Source: Fusarium oxysporum f. sp. lycopersici 4287
Taxonomy: Eukaryota; Ascomycota; Sordariomycetes; Hypocreales; Nectriaceae
Reading direction: 5' to 3'
Length of the DNA: 64,000 nucleotides
NCBI RefSeq assembly: GCF_000149955.1
Contig: NC_030992.1
Location: 4,170,850-4,234,849 of the forward strand
Under the pieces are notes generated by a model. The model had not been told where the DNA came from. It saw only the letters and a program-made list of their open reading frames with translations, and made no database searches. Of the stretch, positions 29,595-43,287 are shown one piece after another (the stretch's first letter is position 1; each line of letters begins with the position of its first letter). Both the position numbers and the translations under genes were made by a program.

Positions 29595-30305
29595 CTACAT
29601 GGGGATCGCCTCTGACTTCTGTACCTCACTCAGATCCTTAGATCTATTCTTCCTGAGCCAAATAATGTCGGAAAGATCCGATTTCTGCTTCCTGGTGCTG
29701 TCATTGGAGGCCGCGAACTTCAACTCATAGATGTCACTCGCTGTCGCACATTTGGTGACTCGGTAGTTCTGGTGATCAAAGACGTCCACACTCTGATCTA
29801 AGATACCCTCCGTGGTAGTTCTAGCCTTCCATTGACGGCGTAAAGACATGATATCGATATCAATACGCACTTTCCCCTCATCGGTTAGATATTGCAGAGG
29901 GGACCCGCCATCAGGTCCTTCGATCAATCCTCCAATGACCTTCTCATATCTGTCCTTTTTGCAGTATCTGTCATGATGCTCTTTAACCAAAGCCGTAATT
30001 GCCTCCACACCATATTCTGTGGTAACAATATCAAGGTCCTTTGTTTGGCGTTCACCATAGCCAAGGATCTTGAGTGCGAATCCTCCCACAAGTGCAATGG
30101 GGATCTTCAGCTCGTATGCCAACCCTGAAATAGTTTTCAAGGCTTTGATAATTAGCTTGTAGTCCTGTTGGTTAGAGAATTCCGCAGGCAAAGTGATGTC
30201 TGTGGAACTCCCAGGACCAAAGCGCTTAGGGCCGAGATCATACTCGTATTCCGGCAGAGGTGGTGCCTGACCCTTGTTGACTGTATCGAGATCAATCTTG
30301 AGCAT
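29595..30305 (-). CDS. Nucleotidyltransferase-fold protein (MNT/AbiEii-like)
   Basis: A single-exon gene of 236 aa from the ATG at 30305; another in-frame ATG at 30341 would add 12 residues. The core VGGFALKILGYGERQTKDLD carries the nucleotidyltransferase pattern G-G-x(9)-R-x-T-x-D-h-D, and KVRIDIDIM supplies the third acidic strand. The preceding helix (KLIIKALKTISGLAYELKIP) and the C-terminal YELKFAASNDSTRKQKSDLSD, with lysines, resemble stand-alone MNT-type or AbiEii-type enzymes that transfer NMP to proteins, tRNA or small molecules. Such proteins are scattered in fungi and their role is unknown. No partner gene is evident next to it. The frame is intact. Confidence 0.75.
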   Translation of the reverse strand: MLKIDLDTVNKGQAPPLPEYEYDLGPKRFGPGSSTDITLPAEFSNQQDYKLIIKALKTISGLAYELKIPIALVGGFALKILGYGERQTKDLDIVTTEYGVEAITALVKEHHDRYCKKDRYEKVIGGLIEGPDGGSPLQYLTDEGKVRIDIDIMSLRRQWKARTTTEGILDQSVDVFDHQNYRVTKCATASDIYELKFAASNDSTRKQKSDLSDIIWLRKNRSKDLSEVQKSEAIPM

Positions 30306-30341
30306 GGTTGTGGCGCAGTGGAATTGGTAAGACAGTCTCAT

Positions 30342-36192: not shown

Positions 36193-36879
36193 TTTGCCAT
36201 TGAAGACTTGGTATCGTATGTTTATGTTTGATTTTGCTTTGTTTTATTATGGAAGTTCGTGTGTAGTTACTCGAGAATGTCTTATTGCACTATCAGTCGT
36301 TACCTCTAAGTCTATGGAGAATAACACAGTCTTTACTGCCTTTGGAGTAGCCCTTATGCATGGGCTACTGTAGTCGCTGTTACTGTGACCCTCTGAGTAC
36401 GATCTGATGTACTCCTGATTGTAGACCGCTGCGATGTAAACGCAACTCTGTCTGAAAGTGCATAATCACTTGCTACTCAAACTGTCATGGTATTGGTTTG
36501 TCGGCCGCGAATTGAAGCAGTCGGTGCCTGGCGATTGCCCATATAGATAGTACTGTGATATAACGGTAACTCACATACAACTATAGTGGAAATAATTCAC
36601 CAACTGAAGACGCTGCACTCGTAGAATCCCTGGCGTCGTGGGCTCGGGCAATACGATCATGCGTACTACTATAGCCATATGGAGCGACATCAACGGGGAG
36701 CCACAGCCAACAAATGGCATGCGCTGCTGGAGCGCGGTTTCAGGTTAAGACAGGGGACAATGCCTAAATATAGCGCATGCTCACTGAAGGATGGGGGCCA
36801 AAACTGTGCAAGTACTCTTGAGGCGGGGTTAAAAGGAAGCTGCATCTTTTACTCCAACACCATCATACAACGAACAACA
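36193..36879. other. Intergenic region
   Basis: No gene is supported. An open frame runs from 36679 into the DUF7730-like gene, but its upstream part (ERHQRGATANKWHA) does not look conserved. I place the start at 36880. Confidence 0.35.
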
Positions 36880-38262
36880 ATGCCTGAAATGACTACCAAA
36901 CTACCAGATCCCCAGAGTCAGTCTCAATTTGCCACTCTTCTGCCTCGCGAAATCCGCGACAGGATCTATCTTGAGCTGTGGCGTTCCTACGGCCTTCGCC
37001 AACATATCGTCTGGCATCGTGATAAAGATGACAAAGCCAAATCTCACTTCTGCCGCTGGCGATGCACCACGCCATTTTCTGTACACGACGAGCTCCAAGA
37101 AACGATTGATGCCACAAGACTCCAGCTCGGTTTCCCATTGGGGGATAGCTTCAGTAACAAGACCTATACCCTGCAGCTCTTTTCTGCCTGGAAGAACCAC
37201 TTTCCGTGTGGCCAACGCATCGCAAGGGTGTATGGTGAGGATGCGGATCCTGGCATCCGAACCTGTTCTTCTCTAGGACGATGCTGGAGTAGCCATAAAT
37301 TGAGCTCTGAGAAATTGTCGACATGCAGACCATATTTGAGTATGCTACTGTCATGCAAGGTCTTGTAAGAGCCAGATGGACAGCTCTGCGCATATAGCTT
37401 ATTTGCTAATCATTGGCGTGCAGGTCCTCGGAATGCCTCGAGTCAATTTACGAATAGACTACCTTCATCTTCACAGATATCTTTGCTCTCAACATGTTTA
37501 TTGGTTTCTGTAAGGTACCGGAGCTCTGGAAAGAGGAGGTCGAGGTAGCCATTTCGCCGCCAGCCTTTCGCACCTACGGCAGACATCTTGAGATATCTTT
37601 AGAGCCAGTCTTCCCTATGCTGTTGCCGTGCTCGTCGCCTACGCTATCACCACTGCCAGAAGACCGTCACACGTCTCTCGATTTCCATGGGCTTCGCCTT
37701 GATCTTTTGGAGAATCTCATGACCCTCAACATCTGGGTATCCGCCCGCTGCACAGAATTATTGCTAGACAGCAATGCAGATAATATCGATCAGAGCCCTT
37801 ACAATATCACTCAGTTAGACCTTGAGTCTCTCAAAGAGGTCTTGTCACCCCTCAATCACGTGAGAAACGTCACTCTGAGCATGCCTCTGGCTCAAGTCTC
37901 TGAGCCTGAAGACGGTTATGTTGTTGAGGATGCGCACCTACGAATATGGCGAAGAGGTGTGGGGGATAGATACCATCCAGCCTTATCACCAATCATTGAG
38001 GTTGAACGCTTGAGCAGCAATGTCTATTCAAGCACAAAGAGGTATGTCGGCTGATTGCAAACAGGGCATTCGCACCGACATTTTCGTCAGAGCGGTCACA
38101 TTGGCGTATAATCCACAAGCAGAGTACCACGTTCATTATTCAATACTTGATACTTCCGCTCCAGGTGCGACGGAATCTCCACAACGTCGGGGCGTAGCTC
38201 GACTGGTTGAACTGATACGTGCTAAGGGGAATAAGATGAAGAGAGATCGCAAGACACAGTAA
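36880..38262 (+). pseudogene. DUF7730-like (LPREIRDRIY) protein, broken by a nonsense codon and a frameshift
   Basis: Exon 1 (36880-37364) reads FATLLPREIRDRIYLELWRS, then SYGLRQHIVWHRDKDD, and ends YLSMLLSCKVL, the pattern of the large Pezizomycotina DUF7730/F-box-like family. A GTAAGA-CAG intron (37365-37423) leads to SSECLESIYE, followed by an in-frame TAG at 37455 where homologues as I recall them read YES-TTF. Coding then resumes in the same frame with TTFIFTDIFALNMFIGFCK to about 38041. The last part (EYHVHYS, RRGVARLVELIRAKGNKMKR, stop near 38260) is in another frame. The 23-nt GT...AG stretch between them is too short to be an intron. Two lesions suggest a pseudogene; function of the family is unknown. 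Confidence 0.7.
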
Positions 38263-38401: not shown

Positions 38402-39367
38402 CTAAACTTGCTTCCCGTCAAGCACCTGATGAAATATCTCAAAGTTGCCTTCGTTCTTTGGGTCAAAGACCGCAAACCATACTTCCCGCCACCAATTTCC
38501 CGAAAACTCATCTTCCCTCAATACCTCCAGCCAGCAATGAGCAATGTCCTCTGGCGGGTTACCATAGACTCCACAGCCCAGAGCACCAAGCACAAGCATG
38601 TCATGTTTGTGTCTAGCCGCCATGCGCAAACAAAGTCTCATCTTAGCCTTTGTGATATCGCGGTCTCGATCGTTTGCAAAGACACGCTTTTCGAAGACTT
38701 CAGAACTGGACCTGCGCATTCTGTCCTTGCGAGGTTCGTTGGTGAAAAGGCGAACTGGTGGACTCCGTAAGGCAGCCACAGTCAGGGCGCTCACCACGGG
38801 GAGTTCTCTTGCTGGGAGTGAAGATATCTCATGGCTTGAGGATAGGTCATCACGCATGATGAGTGCATAGGGGCTGTAGAGAGCCTCGTCTCTCTCGAGG
38901 GGGTAGTGCTTTTTGTTGAGACTCAAGGCGAGGGTGCTGCGGTAGCAGAGTGCCTCCTCTTGGGCCATGGCCCCGTTGAGCCATCCCCCGCCTGGAGAGT
39001 GACGATTCGCAAAATTAACAACAATGGGAGGCTGACTCTTTGGACCAGCATCAGCTTGTGCCCTTTGGCAGAGTTCGATGGCAGCGTTGAGCGTATCATC
39101 GTTGATGACCTTTATGGTAGCTGGCTGCCTGTATGATGGACAGTGGCCAGGGTGAAGACGAGTAAGAGAGCCAAACGAGTACTTGACTGAGTGTCTCGCC
39201 AAATCGTTTGTACCTAATTCTTTGAGCAGACTGCGAGAGATGTCTAGAGTCTCTTGTGCAGTAGCTCTGAGTTCTTCTCTCTGGCTGCTATCATAGGGAC
39301 GGTATGGGGTTGAGTGCCGAGAAGATTGCCCATGTCGCCTAGTGTCTGAGAATGATGATCTCTTCAT
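38402..39367 (-). CDS. Poly(ADP-ribose) glycohydrolase of bacterial/fungal type (macrodomain fold)
   Basis: A single-exon gene of 321 aa. The PARG signature GGG-x7-QEE is present in full as SPGGGWLNGAMAQEEALCY, with catalytic Glu in QEE. ATIKVINDDTLNAAIEL and PPIVVNFANRHSPGG form the macrodomain core, and KHDMLVLGALGCGVYGNPP is the ribose-phosphate loop. The N-terminal RRHGQSS...ELRATAQETL segment matches the helical cap of the TIGR02452 group. It would remove ADP-ribose chains or units from proteins in cytosol or nucleus. The gene is head to head with a PARP-like ADP-ribosyltransferase at 40478, suggesting paired writer and eraser. Length is usual for the family, and there is no lesion. Confidence 0.93.
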   Translation of the reverse strand: MKRSSFSDTRRHGQSSRHSTPYRPYDSSQREELRATAQETLDISRSLLKELGTNDLARHSVKYSFGSLTRLHPGHCPSYRQPATIKVINDDTLNAAIELCQRAQADAGPKSQPPIVVNFANRHSPGGGWLNGAMAQEEALCYRSTLALSLNKKHYPLERDEALYSPYALIMRDDLSSSHEISSLPARELPVVSALTVAALRSPPVRLFTNEPRKDRMRRSSSEVFEKRVFANDRDRDITKAKMRLCLRMAARHKHDMLVLGALGCGVYGNPPEDIAHCWLEVLREDEFSGNWWREVWFAVFDPKNEGNFEIFHQVLDGKQV

Positions 39368-40477
39368 GTTCGAGTAAAATTTTGAGATGTGTTATCTTCA
39401 TGAGATTACGGATCAGGGCTTCTCGGGACTCTATCTAATACCTTCGTGCTAGGGCTAATAGCTTAATTAGATTCTTGCAGATGAAAACTGATTTAGGAAC
39501 CTGCTCTAGAGGGCTAATGAATTCGCAGCCTCGCCACGTCATTCGATATGCAGTAAGATTGCTGGGGGGTTGAAGGAGCCATCCAGTGAACTGGCCAGTC
39601 AGCAACGCCACGCTTGTGCATTAGAATGAATGCCTCAATTGTTCACACAACGGTGGAACAGGTCAGCTGATTGAACGTTTCTATTAAAATGATGGTTGAT
39701 TACGCACTCTCACAGGGGGTTTGAAACACAGTATCACAATCACCGGACATTAGATGGAACATAAATATAAACGAATGCAACATATAAGACAATGCACTTC
39801 TCTTTTGGGTAATCGGTAGACCGATTCAGAATAGTTGCTTACTTACGTGGCCGTCCGTAAGAAGCTTAGTTGCCCAGAACACCTTGTAAGTAAGCTTATG
39901 TTCCCTGCAACGCTGCATGCACTCGCCTGAGTTATGATATGAGTCAAGTCACCCAACCTCCAACCACCTGAAATTCCATTGGCTATTATTGAATACCCAA
40001 CTTCCATCTGATAAGCCGCAGAGCTTTCAGAGCTGATGTGATTACGCCAAAAGAGTTTCATGATTGATGATTGCAGATTGAAAGTGTAAAAAGGCCGGAG
40101 AATGGAAGGGAATTGTGCCACGTCAAGGATATCTAGGACTTTTGATGTGCATCAACGTCTGAGCTGCTCAGCAAACGTGAGGCGACAGTTTGACTGGCAA
40201 AGAGCTGCCTAATCCTTCTCGCCTATAGCATTCAGAGGCTCCGGACATTCTGATCCGTTAACTGCTTGTTGTCAGAATAGGCAATACACCTTGATAGCTG
40301 TTCTACTTATATGGCTCCTCAGATCAGGTCATCATGGCACCTAGAGCCGCACTCGCATGAGACAAATCGAAGTCTTTTTGAGATTCAAACGTTGGTCAAC
40401 CGACAGGAATTTGTTGAAATAGCTTGCGTCTTTTATCTCTCAAAGTAGCCAGCCTCAAGTCTTGTCTTATAACCACA
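39368..40477. promoter_or_regulatory. Shared upstream region of the PARG and ADP-ribosyltransferase genes
   Basis: 1110 bp between the divergent starts. No gene-like frame is supported; the 92-codon minus-strand frame at 39843 has no recognisable features. The arrangement is compatible with joint control of both genes. Confidence 0.4.
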
Positions 40478-41425
40478 ATGCCAATTGTATGTACTTGGCT
40501 CGACCACTTGAGACGGATACTAAGCAGTCTTTTAGCGCATGAAACGCTTGAGTCGAAGTGATCCAAACTACAAGGATCGTGAGGTCTTCTCTATCTCGCA
40601 TTTATCTTATCAGCACTAATCCAATTGTTCAGATGAGTTCAAGTTCTATCATTCATGGTGCCACGATGAGAAAAGTGCCAAGATCAAGTCAATCTACCTA
40701 GCCAGTCGAGACGATATCGACAAGTCTTATCGGGGGCAGCGCTTTTTCACATATCTGTAAGACAGAACTCGAGTTTACTGAAACCATGTGACCACTAATC
40801 TCAGTTACAGGAATGGTGGGAGTTATAAGAGGTTGTATCATGGTACATCGCGTGCATGTCACATTGGAGAGTCGGGCAATGATCTGAAGCTCTGCCACGA
40901 CGATGATTGTGGCACATGCGGCATACTCAGGCAGTCATTCAAACTGAAATATGCCGGTGAGTTCAGCGTTGACGAGAAATTACATAAGCACACTAACATT
41001 CCAAGATGACGACGGAATGTTTGGTCCCGGCATTTACTCTACACCGAATTCTTCAAGTGAGTCCCGCTCATATTCCCCAGTTATTTTGCAAGGATGTTCA
41101 TCAGAGATACAGAAGCAGACGTCTACGTGAAGAACCACTATATCAGCTCAAACCTCCACGCTATGCTTATTTGCTACGTCGTGGCGAGCAAACCTCAGCG
41201 CAAATTGCTAGCAGACCACGACATCACCAGGCCCTCTCGTGGCTTCAACTGTGTAAGTTCCCGATACCTGCGAACGATTGGTCACTAACGACATCAAAGG
41301 TCGAGGGCGTTACTATTAATAACGGGGGGTCGCTTCAATACCCAGAGTTTGTCGTGTATCGGGAGGATGCAATTGTTCCAGTTGGACTCATCATGTATAC
41401 TCGGAAGGGTTGGGAGCCATTATGA
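40478..41425 (+). CDS. PARP-like ADP-ribosyltransferase, small single-domain
   Basis: Seven exons (40478-40486, 40536-40578, 40633-40756, 40805-40956, 41006-41056, 41107-41252, 41300-41425) give 216 aa in one frame; introns are 47-54 nt. The PARP-type H-Y-E triad is visible: RLYHGTS (His), MFGPGIYSTPNSS (Tyr) and SLQYPEFVVYREDAIVP (Glu, like the Glu-x-I/V-V-Y of PARP1). HDDDCGTCGILRQSFKLKYA and NLHAMLICYVV match the broad fungal/plant group of stand-alone PARP-like domains. It would transfer ADP-ribose from NAD+ to proteins or nucleic acids; substrate unknown. There is no DNA-binding domain, so it is not a canonical PARP. The first tiny exon (MPI) and the acceptor of intron 5 are the least certain. 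Confidence 0.85.
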
Positions 41426-41778: not shown

Positions 41779-43287
41779 ATGCAGTCAGCAATCATTTGGC
41801 CTACCAAGTTCCTGCCCGGAACCACCGACAACTATGTCTCCAATGAAGTAATTATACGCGACATCACCCATTGTGTTAAATCAGAAGTGTATTTTCTAAC
41901 CTTAGGACTAACTTATAAACTTAATACCGCCACGACCTTCTAATTGCTCTAAACCATCTTCTAGTCTAGCCTTCTTCCCTGATAGCACTAATATATATAT
42001 TATTATAAAACCTTTAGCTAAACTTTACTTATATATTAGTATTTATTAATAAATCTAAAAGTTATATACCTTACCTAAAAGTTAAATATGCCTTATTTAA
42101 GCTGCCTTTAATTATTAAAGCTTTCTCCCTTTATAATAATTATCCTTTTAGTAAATTACTATTTATATATTAATTAAAGATATAATTTAATTTTAATTTT
42201 ACTTAATTAGCTATATAGCCTTTTTCCTTTTTTTTTTAATTAATTTCTTTAACTTATAAAAAACCTTATATAAGGCCTTTTTTTTTTATTAAGTAATTTA
42301 AATAACCCCTAAAGAGAATTTATTTTACTTGGCTATATAAATAATAATATTATAATTAAAAAGAGCTAATTAAATAAGGAATTAATTATTAAGCTTATTA
42401 TATTCTTATATATTAATAGATTTTTATATAGCTTTATATTACTATTCAAAAGCCTTATAAATAAGTTAGCCCTAAAGAGTTATCTTATATATTATTATAA
42501 CCTAAGATATAATTATAAATTTATAAGTATAACTATAAAGGTCTACTTAGTTTAAGTAATTTTAATAAAAAAATACCCTTATTAATATAAAAGCTATTAT
42601 CTTAAAGATTTAGGGTTTTTATAATATTAAGTTAACCTATTTTAGCTAAGGGATTAGAGGTATTATCTTATATGCCTTTAAGGCTAATTAAAGACTTATA
42701 ATCTAGGTTTTCCTTATATTAGCTTTATATTATAGTAATTAGTTAGGTATTTTAGTATAATATCTAAGTTATAAGCCAGATGTGTTATTTGCAGTTGAGA
42801 CTTGTGGTTAAGAGCTTAATTTAGCATAGAGAACTTAGTACGCGATATCACAGCCGCCCAAATTTGGACCTACCTCGCCGACATCACACAATGGGAGTCG
42901 TACTACAATAACTGCAGTCATATCACGCCGCCAATCGGAGGCAACAACCTCAAGAAGGGCGACAGCTTCAGCTTCTCGACTTTCGGCTTTCCCCCCTTTC
43001 CGGCAGAAGTCATGGAGTCTCTGCCGCCGAGCGCGGGCTCACCAGGACGCTTGGCATGGAGAGCATGGGTAGATGGGAACGAGAGCTCTAAGCTAGATGT
43101 GTATCACGCTTGGATTGTGGAGGACTTGGAATATGGCGTGGTTAGAATCTTGACGCAGGAGTCTCAGATTGGACAGCCCGCGGCTAAGCTTGCGGCTACA
43201 AAGCCAAATCCCATGTTGAATGGTCATCAGGAGTGGCTCGACAGCTTGGTCAGCTTTACCAAGCAGAAACAGAATACCTTAAGCTAA
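41779..43287 (+). pseudogene. SRPBCC (START/polyketide-cyclase-like) gene split by an insertion
   Basis: The N-terminal piece starts at 41779 with SAIIWPTKFLPGTTDNYVSN and runs to EVIIRDIT at 41867. The rest resumes at 42839 as VRDITAAQIWTYLADITQWE, and continues through YYNNC, FSTFGFPPFPAEV, SPGRLAWRAWVDG, KLDVYHAWIVEDL and RILTQESQIGQPAAKLAATK to TAA at 43285. Without the insert it would encode about 175-180 aa, the usual length of this ligand-binding fold. The junction repeats 13 bp (TACGCGAYATCAC). A 971-bp intron is not plausible here because no splice pair keeps frame, and the insert is AT-rich. The gene is therefore disrupted. Confidence 0.82.
41868..42838. mobile_element. AT-rich, RIP-degraded insertion with 13-bp target-site duplication
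   Basis: About 971 bp with very low GC, dominated by TA, TTA and ATA steps, and no open frame. It is flanked by TACGCGACATCAC (41855-41867) and TACGCGATATCAC (42839-42851). The single difference is CA to TA, the RIP-type change. The element type cannot be told because the sequence is saturated with mutations; no clear terminal inverted repeats are visible. Its last 40 bp resemble sequence just after the host gene (43291-43330). Confidence 0.7.

What the first reader, a model, noticed from the sequence alone, without database searches (positions are those of the whole stretch)
38402..41425. Head-to-head ADP-ribose eraser (PARG) and writer (PARP-like ART) pair
A single-exon PARG with the complete GGG-x7-QEE signature and a seven-exon small PARP-like transferase with a readable H-Y-E triad sit divergently with 1.1 kb between them. 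Canonical fungal PARPs carry DNA-binding and WGR domains; this transferase is a bare catalytic domain. Pairing opposite activities resembles toxin-antitoxin-style or signalling modules known in bacteria. I know of no described fungal system of this form, so a co-regulated ADP-ribosylation module in accessory DNA is worth testing.
Basis: partly seen in the sequence, partly recalled or inferred. Interest (0 to 1): 0.75.

Follow-up and report, generated by a model that had tools for sequence, protein, structure and literature searches.

The report
Linked ADP-ribose writer and eraser genes
A fungus of the Fusarium oxysporum type carries, back to back, an enzyme gene likely to attach ADP-ribose tags and an enzyme gene likely to remove them, and relatives of both genes share a stretch of chromosome in several other fungi, so this looks like a small inherited module of unknown purpose.

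Summary
Window 38402-39367 (-) encodes a 321-aa microbial-type PARG (PF10021, E=4e-22; GGG-x7-QEE). Window 40478-41425 (+) encodes a seven-exon, 212-aa PARP-fold transferase (ART; PF00644; H69-Y118-E187); its 98% identical F. oxysporum homologue folds with pLDDT 95.4 and resembles tankyrase and PARP4. The start codons face away from each other across 1110 bp. Pairing is unlikely to be chance: of 6 other assemblies whose ART and PARG both appeared in my listings, 5 have them on contigs of equal length (two with consecutive gene tags), in Fusarium, Xylaria and Nemania; Chaetomium tenue does not. The PARG is much more widespread than the ART. None of 99 prokaryotic or viral PARG loci has such an ART nearby. 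Best reading: a conserved fungal writer-eraser cassette. Toxin-antitoxin or defence use is possible but untested; orientation elsewhere, expression and activity are unknown. 'No described fungal system' is too strong: SirTM-macrodomain modules are reported in fungi, and this genome has an apparent fused one.

The parts
38402..39367 (-). Microbial-type (bacterial-type) PARG, 321 aa, single exon, GGG-x7-QEE signature; predicted ADP-ribose eraser
   Evidence: PF10021 E=4e-22; TIGR02452 E=1.7e-28; profile matches Thermomonospora curvata PARG 3sig E=1e-25; AF2 model pLDDT 83.5, Foldseek best 3sih E=9.9e-16
39368..40477 (.). 1110-bp region between the two start codons (candidate shared promoter; no function shown)
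   Evidence: coordinates of the two ATGs; repeat scan shows only three weak two-copy repeats and one 14-nt imperfect inverted repeat, likely chance
40478..41425 (+). PARP-fold ADP-ribosyltransferase, 212 aa, seven exons (40478-40486, 40536-40578, 40633-40756, 40811-40956, 41006-41056, 41113-41252, 41300-41425); H69-Y118-E187; predicted writer
40857..40919 (+). Coding span of the four-cysteine insert C75-x11-C87-x4-C92-x2-C95 in exon 4, between the catalytic H and the following helix; zinc binding is inferred
   Evidence: sequence with the exon model; all four cysteines 46 of 46 in the aligned relatives

Best explanation
A conserved, physically linked writer-eraser cassette for reversible ADP-ribosylation in filamentous ascomycetes. 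The writer is a minimal PARP-type transferase with an H-Y-E active site and a built-in four-cysteine (probably zinc) insert that follows the catalytic H-G motif and may help choose the target; it would transfer ADP-ribose, perhaps short chains, from NAD+ to an unknown protein or nucleic acid. The adjacent microbial-type PARG would cleave ribose-linked ADP-ribose and so limit the mark. Linkage keeps writer and eraser inherited, and perhaps expressed, together. Shown: both genes, their family and predicted folds, catalytic residues, and co-location on contigs of several species. Inferred: activity, chain formation, zinc, shared promoter, target, and any stress or defence role.
For: Catalytic residues and folds of both enzymes. 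The chemistry fits: an H-Y-E PARP-type writer and an eraser type that cleaves PAR; bacterial-type PARGs also remove 2'-OH-linked RNA ADP-ribose and 5'-phosphate ADP-ribose (PMC11833690, passages). Controls: the second, diverged ART of F. flagelliforme (P0017) is on another contig than that PARG, and the window genome's ART paralogue (C1) has no PARG match on its contig.
Against: Chaetomium tenue has its ART and its listed PARG on different contigs (4,344,989 and 4,912,170 bp). A second N. serpens assembly (F5X97DRAFT, P0053) has the PARG but no ART row of its own was listed. The PARG subfamily is far wider than the ART: in the 123-row PARG tree it spans Aspergillus, Penicillium, Metarhizium and others, for which no named ART row was listed, so the PARG exists without this ART. 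Same-contig evidence rests on contig lengths and tags, not on DNA I could read; distance and orientation elsewhere are unknown. No expression or activity data. The F. mundagurra gene models both look damaged, and the F. nematophilum ART row is partial (112 aa).
Confidence: 0.62

Rival explanations
1. Toxin-antitoxin-like or selfish cassette: the ART is harmful when unopposed, and the adjacent PARG protects the carrier; the pair persists through addiction, or through use in defence (virus, competitor, non-self fusion).
For: A bare catalytic ART next to an eraser is the general layout of DarTG-like modules; the ART is much patchier than the PARG, as expected if orphan erasers are harmless; in F. 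mundagurra both deposited models look degenerate, the ART model missing the H-G motif region and the PARG cut at 191 aa with QEE replaced by EEE.
Against: No match to PADLOC defence models; large F. oxysporum-type clusters (43 and 41 members) rather than scattered copies; two draft gene models in one species are weak evidence of co-decay; no toxicity data. ART relatives without a listed PARG (Sporothrix, Monosporascus, many Agaricomycetes) could not be judged, because only 120 of 847 PARG hits were listed.
Confidence: 0.2
2. Linkage is a passive leftover: two genes that were neighbours in a Sordariomycete ancestor and have simply stayed together, without functional coupling.
For: The PARG occurs without a listed ART in many lineages; the gap is 1.1 kb, larger than a typical compact bidirectional promoter (recalled).
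Against: Opposite predicted activities, kept together between Hypocreales and Xylariales (orders recalled), where local gene order is generally poorly kept (recalled), make a passive leftover less likely; in this genome no other PARP-type match lies within 150 kb of a match to the three eraser families searched.
Confidence: 0.15
3. One or both enzymes are inactive or do something else (for example a pseudo-ART that only binds NAD or RNA through its cysteine insert).
For: PARP-fold proteins can lose activity (RCD1 is reported inactive, PMC2964712, passage); the Pfam score of the ART is modest (30.8 bits).
Against: H, Y and E are kept in 45, 46 and 45 of 46 aligned relatives; the PARG signature is intact in the window.
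Confidence: 0.08

Closest known systems
SirTM - Zn-macrodomain modules (bacteria and fungi)
   Same: Associated ADP-ribose writer and macrodomain-fold eraser; [quoted passage not shown] a frame with a macrodomain and a sirtuin-like part is in this genome at C10:161666
   Different: Writer there is a sirtuin, here a PARP-fold H-Y-E transferase; eraser there is a MacroD/Zn-macrodomain, here a microbial-type PARG; here separate divergent genes
DarT-DarG and DarT-NADAR toxin-antitoxin systems (bacteria)
   Same: A transferase distantly related to PARPs beside an ADP-ribose hydrolase
   Different: Bacterial systems acting on DNA bases (PMC11833690, passages); no PADLOC model matched here; toxicity not shown here
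Canonical fungal PARP1/PrpA and canonical PARG (FonPARP1 FOXG_07574, FonPARG1 FOXG_05947)
   Same: Poly-ADP-ribose writer and eraser in F. oxysporum (PMC11058995, passages)
   Different: Canonical PARP has BRCT, WGR and regulatory domains; in this genome the best PARP and canonical PARG matches are on different contigs, C4 and C2; the window pair is not in the passages I saw of PMC11058995, nor in parts 1-2 of 4 of PMC11569842
Bacterial-type PARGs (Thermomonospora curvata, Deinococcus radiodurans)
   Same: Same family, signature and fold
   Different: None of 99 prokaryotic or viral PARG loci examined has a transferase of this type within about 4 kb; the D. radiodurans gene is in a putative operon with RNA/DNA repair genes (PMC11833690, passages)
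Agaricomycete PARP-domain proteins with N-terminal cysteine repeats (e.g. Galerina GALMADRAFT_245586)
   Same: Same transferase family with the four-cysteine insert
   Different: Two read in full (P0144, P0171) are over 460 aa with N-terminal cysteine-rich repeats; some have near-consecutive tags; whether a PARG is linked could not be tested

Membership tests
PARP-type ADP-ribosyltransferases (PF00644) | Match to the catalytic domain above the curated cut-off | tested here: met
   30.8 bits against 26.7, 214-aa model
PARP-type ADP-ribosyltransferases (PF00644) | H-Y-E triad in PARP fold | tested here: met
PARP-type ADP-ribosyltransferases (PF00644) | NAD+-dependent (poly)ADP-ribosylation | not testable with these tools
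   needs purified protein
PARP1-like fungal PARPs (PrpA/FonPARP1) | BRCT, WGR and regulatory domains before the catalytic domain | tested here: not met
   only PF00644 passes its curated cut-off in the 214-aa model (a DUF5125 match at E=0.1, 13 bits, is below its cut-off of 27)
Microbial-type PARG (PF10021) | Catalytic domain match and GGG-X6-8-QEE signature | tested here: met
   E=4e-22; GGG-x7-QEE in sequence; signature definition from PMC4245714
Microbial-type PARG (PF10021) | Hydrolysis of poly(ADP-ribose) | not testable with these tools
   needs purified protein
Canonical PARG (PF05028) | Match to the C-terminal catalytic model | tested here: not met
   E=0.21, 11.6 bits, below cut-off 26.3
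SirTM-macrodomain module | Writer is a class M sirtuin | tested here: not met
   writer is PARP family and fold
DarTG-type toxin-antitoxin | DarT transferase and DarG macrodomain or NADAR sequence families | tested here: inconclusive
   no PADLOC model at E<=0.1 for either protein, but I did not verify which DarT models that library holds
DarTG-type toxin-antitoxin | Toxicity of writer neutralised by eraser | not testable with these tools
   needs expression tests

The most novel reading that the evidence does not exclude
A eukaryotic addiction or defence cassette: a minimal zinc-insert PARP that poisons the fungal cell or an invader by ADP-ribosylating RNA or protein, held in check by its divergently encoded PARG, and inherited as a unit from Fusarium to Xylaria.
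Probability: 0.15. Interest if true: 0.85.

Novelty: new variant of a known kind. Interest (0 to 1): 0.55.

Why it matters
Published accounts describe F. oxysporum as having one PARP and one PARG (PMC11058995, passages) or one main PARP, four additional PARP-domain proteins in strain 4287, and one PARG (PMC11569842, parts 1-2 of 4); this pair and the other microbial-type PARG genes are outside those accounts as far as I read them. If the pair is a functional module, it is a small, testable eukaryotic writer-eraser system without the DNA-damage domains, and the lack of a pathogenicity effect of deleting the canonical PARG would need re-reading because other PARG genes remain. The invariant cysteine insert offers a handle on target choice.

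Tried and rejected
Chance neighbourhood: rejected as the main reading by the five same-length-contig pairs. Paralogous pairs in the same genome: PARG relatives on C7 (2.756 Mb), C13 and C9 and the ART relative on C1 are not paired with each other; the nearest other PARP-eraser combination on one contig is on C9, about 154 kb apart. Eraser families searched were PF10021, PF05028 and PF01661 only; ARH-type hydrolases were not searched.

Bacterial or viral origin of the pair: the ART profile found no relative in the prokaryote collection (122 pattern matches, none confirmed) and one diverged protein in the viral collection. Of 120 confirmed prokaryotic PARG stretches the best 80 were kept; those 80 and 19 viral loci carried no ART of this family (0 of 99), with the viral-collection locus L032 detected as positive control. 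Only open stretches of 60 aa or more within about 4 kb (less at contig ends), this one ART profile, and E up to 1 were tested; other ART families were not.

Absence of a PARG beside other ARTs could not be judged, because one search lists 120 of 847 hits. The count of same-assembly pairs uses only ART rows whose species and tag prefix (or contig length) also appear among the listed PARG rows. Dropped as untestable: ART rows whose listed PARG came from another assembly (F. oxysporum, F. avenaceum, F. lateritium), rows with no PARG of that species listed (F. agapanthi, F. denticulatum, Fusarium NRRL 66182, Sporothrix, Monosporascus, Clonostachys rosea, F. clavum, Coniophora and the Agaricomycetes), and unnamed metagenome rows. 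The F. nematophilum ART row (P0143) is a 112-aa partial model that lacks the H-G region.

Foldseek also listed SPX-domain entries for the PARG model; they rank far below the bacterial PARGs (best E 1.8e-6 against 9.9e-16) and I take them as a side effect, perhaps of carrier proteins in those crystals. The bacterial PARG matches themselves carry rmsd of 7-9 Angstrom over 281-314 columns, so the model's loops should not be over-read. A search for promoter repeats gave nothing convincing.

Literature: searches turned up no listed title or abstract start describing a linked PARP-PARG pair in fungi in that library (one search listed 20 of 38 papers; one search found none). Beyond those listings I read: PMC11569842 parts 1-2 of 4; PMC4245714 passages and sections 11 and 14; passages only of PMC11058995, PMC7050489, PMC11833690 and PMC2964712. 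A 2018 paper on a 'unique' F. oxysporum PARG (title seen in a reference list) is not held.

Full report
Where it is. The window is G000:C7:4170850-4234849 of a 61.24-Mb assembly in 71 contigs. C7 is 4,347,182 bp, so the pair lies about 136 kb from its end. The closest deposited proteins are from F. oxysporum. Equal-scoring PARP matches on C3 and C6, together with the chromosome 3, 4 and 6 PARPs of strain 4287 in PMC11569842, suggest F. oxysporum f. sp. lycopersici 4287 or a close relative; this is inference.

The eraser. 38402-39367 (-) is a single frame of 321 aa. It matches Microbial-type PARG, PF10021, at E=4e-22, and not the canonical PARG model (11.6 bits against a cut-off of 26.3). Its GGG-x7-QEE signature is complete. 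A 32-row profile (the window protein and 31 of the 120 listed PARG rows) matches T. curvata PARG (3sig) at E=1e-25 and D. radiodurans PARG at about 1e-23. The AlphaFold2 model (mean pLDDT 83.5; residues 1-25 under 50) finds those same enzymes first by Foldseek (3sih E=9.9e-16, query TM 0.62, rmsd 8.3). In the 32 rows the signature columns are 30, 32, 32 (GGG) and 31, 31, 32 (QEE) of 32.

Between the catalytic H-G motif and the helix that follows there is an insert with C75-x11-C87-x4-C92-x2-C95 (window 40857-40919). All four cysteines are present in 46 of 46 rows, including basidiomycete proteins. It is not where I recall the tankyrase zinc site to be.

Pairing elsewhere. I had no fungal DNA collection, so I used species, gene tags and contig lengths printed with the homologues. 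Of the 124 distinct ART rows and the 120 listed of 847 PARG rows, six other assemblies show both genes. Chaetomium tenue does not (4,344,989 and 4,912,170 bp). By ART rows rather than assemblies the count is 5 of 7, the seventh being the diverged second ART of F. flagelliforme (P0017), which is on an 8,717,868-bp contig. A second N. serpens assembly (P0053, F5X97DRAFT) shows a PARG without a listed ART. Orientation and distance in those species are unknown.

Pairing inside this genome. PARP-type matches lie on C4, C3 and C6 (two genes each, equal scores), C9 and C1, and an ART paralogue elsewhere on C1. Erasers lie on C7 (2.756 Mb), C13 and C9 (microbial PARG), C2 (canonical PARG) and C10 (two macrodomains). 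Apart from the window pair, the nearest PARP and eraser on one contig are on C9, about 154 kb apart. One C10 macrodomain frame (625 aa) continues into a sirtuin-like part (read by eye, no sirtuin model run); it fits the fungal SirTM-macrodomain modules described in PMC7050489 (passages). These searches are exon by exon and are lower bounds; ARH-type erasers were not searched.

History. In a 123-row PARG tree made with the quick method the window protein groups with Fusarium PARGs, the F. nematophilum PARG stands in another, weakly placed group, and the Xylaria and Nemania paired PARGs sit among other Xylariales (order recalled); the same subfamily is common in Aspergillus and Penicillium, for which no named ART row was listed. 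In a 27-row ART tree the Xylaria and Nemania ARTs join (100/99) and ten Fusarium ARTs join (99/97); F. nematophilum and the deeper order are unresolved. Both trees are compatible with a pair inherited down the Sordariomycetes and lost, in its writer half, in many lines; they do not exclude transfer, and missed gene models could mimic loss. Many Agaricomycetes carry the ART family; two read in full have extra N-terminal cysteine repeats, so the ascomycete form looks like the bare version. Prokaryotic and viral PARG loci do not carry such an ART nearby: 0 of 99.

How it probably works. The H-Y-E triad is that of chain-forming PARPs (recalled), and PARG cleaves PAR chains but not efficiently the last protein-linked unit (PMC4245714, passages). 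Bacterial-type PARGs also remove 2'-OH-linked ADP-ribose from RNA and ADP-ribose from 5'-phosphate ends (PMC11833690, passages). So writer and eraser are chemically matched for either chains or RNA-linked marks. What the mark is for is not shown. A stress or defence role and an addiction role are both open; I give the plain writer-eraser module 0.62 and the toxin-antitoxin reading 0.2.

Relation to earlier work. PMC11058995 (passages) reports one PARP and one PARG in F. oxysporum f. sp. niveum; PMC11569842 (parts 1-2 of 4) reports one PARG and four additional PARP-domain proteins, on chromosomes 3 and 6, in strain 4287. Neither account, as far as read, includes this pair. PMC4245714 (sections 11 and 14) already records microbial-type PARGs in filamentous ascomycetes, so the PARG by itself is known; the linked pair is what appears to be new, within the nine literature searches named under Tried and rejected.

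Noticed in passing
window 29595-30341 (-): A 248-aa AbiEii-like nucleotidyltransferase (PF08843, E=1.1e-7), the family of a bacterial type IV toxin, about 8 kb from the pair.
   Followed up: no
window 36679-38054 (+): A DUF7730-like stretch (weak, E=0.001, below cut-off, first frame only) followed by a second open frame next to the 3' end of the PARG; possibly introns or a decayed gene.
   Followed up: no
window 42001-43000: A stretch of 24.9% GC beside the 3' side of the transferase gene, looking like repeat-induced mutation of an old repeat.
   Followed up: no
L028 52-957 and 1414-2424 (G000 C7 near 2.755 Mb): A BCS1-like AAA ATPase gene, recognised by eye, lies beside the PARG paralogue; this may be why several deposited fungal PARGs are named 'mitochondrial chaperone BCS1'.
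   Followed up: partly
L032 7644-8573: A viral-collection contig with a long RNA-polymerase-like frame (recognised by eye) encodes a PARP-like protein (profile E=2.6e-17).
   Followed up: partly
G000 C3:349187 and C6:4103803; C3:461652 and C6:3991393: Two PARP matches with equal scores on C3 and C6 in mirrored order and at nearly equal spacing, which looks like a segmental duplication between the two contigs.
   Followed up: no
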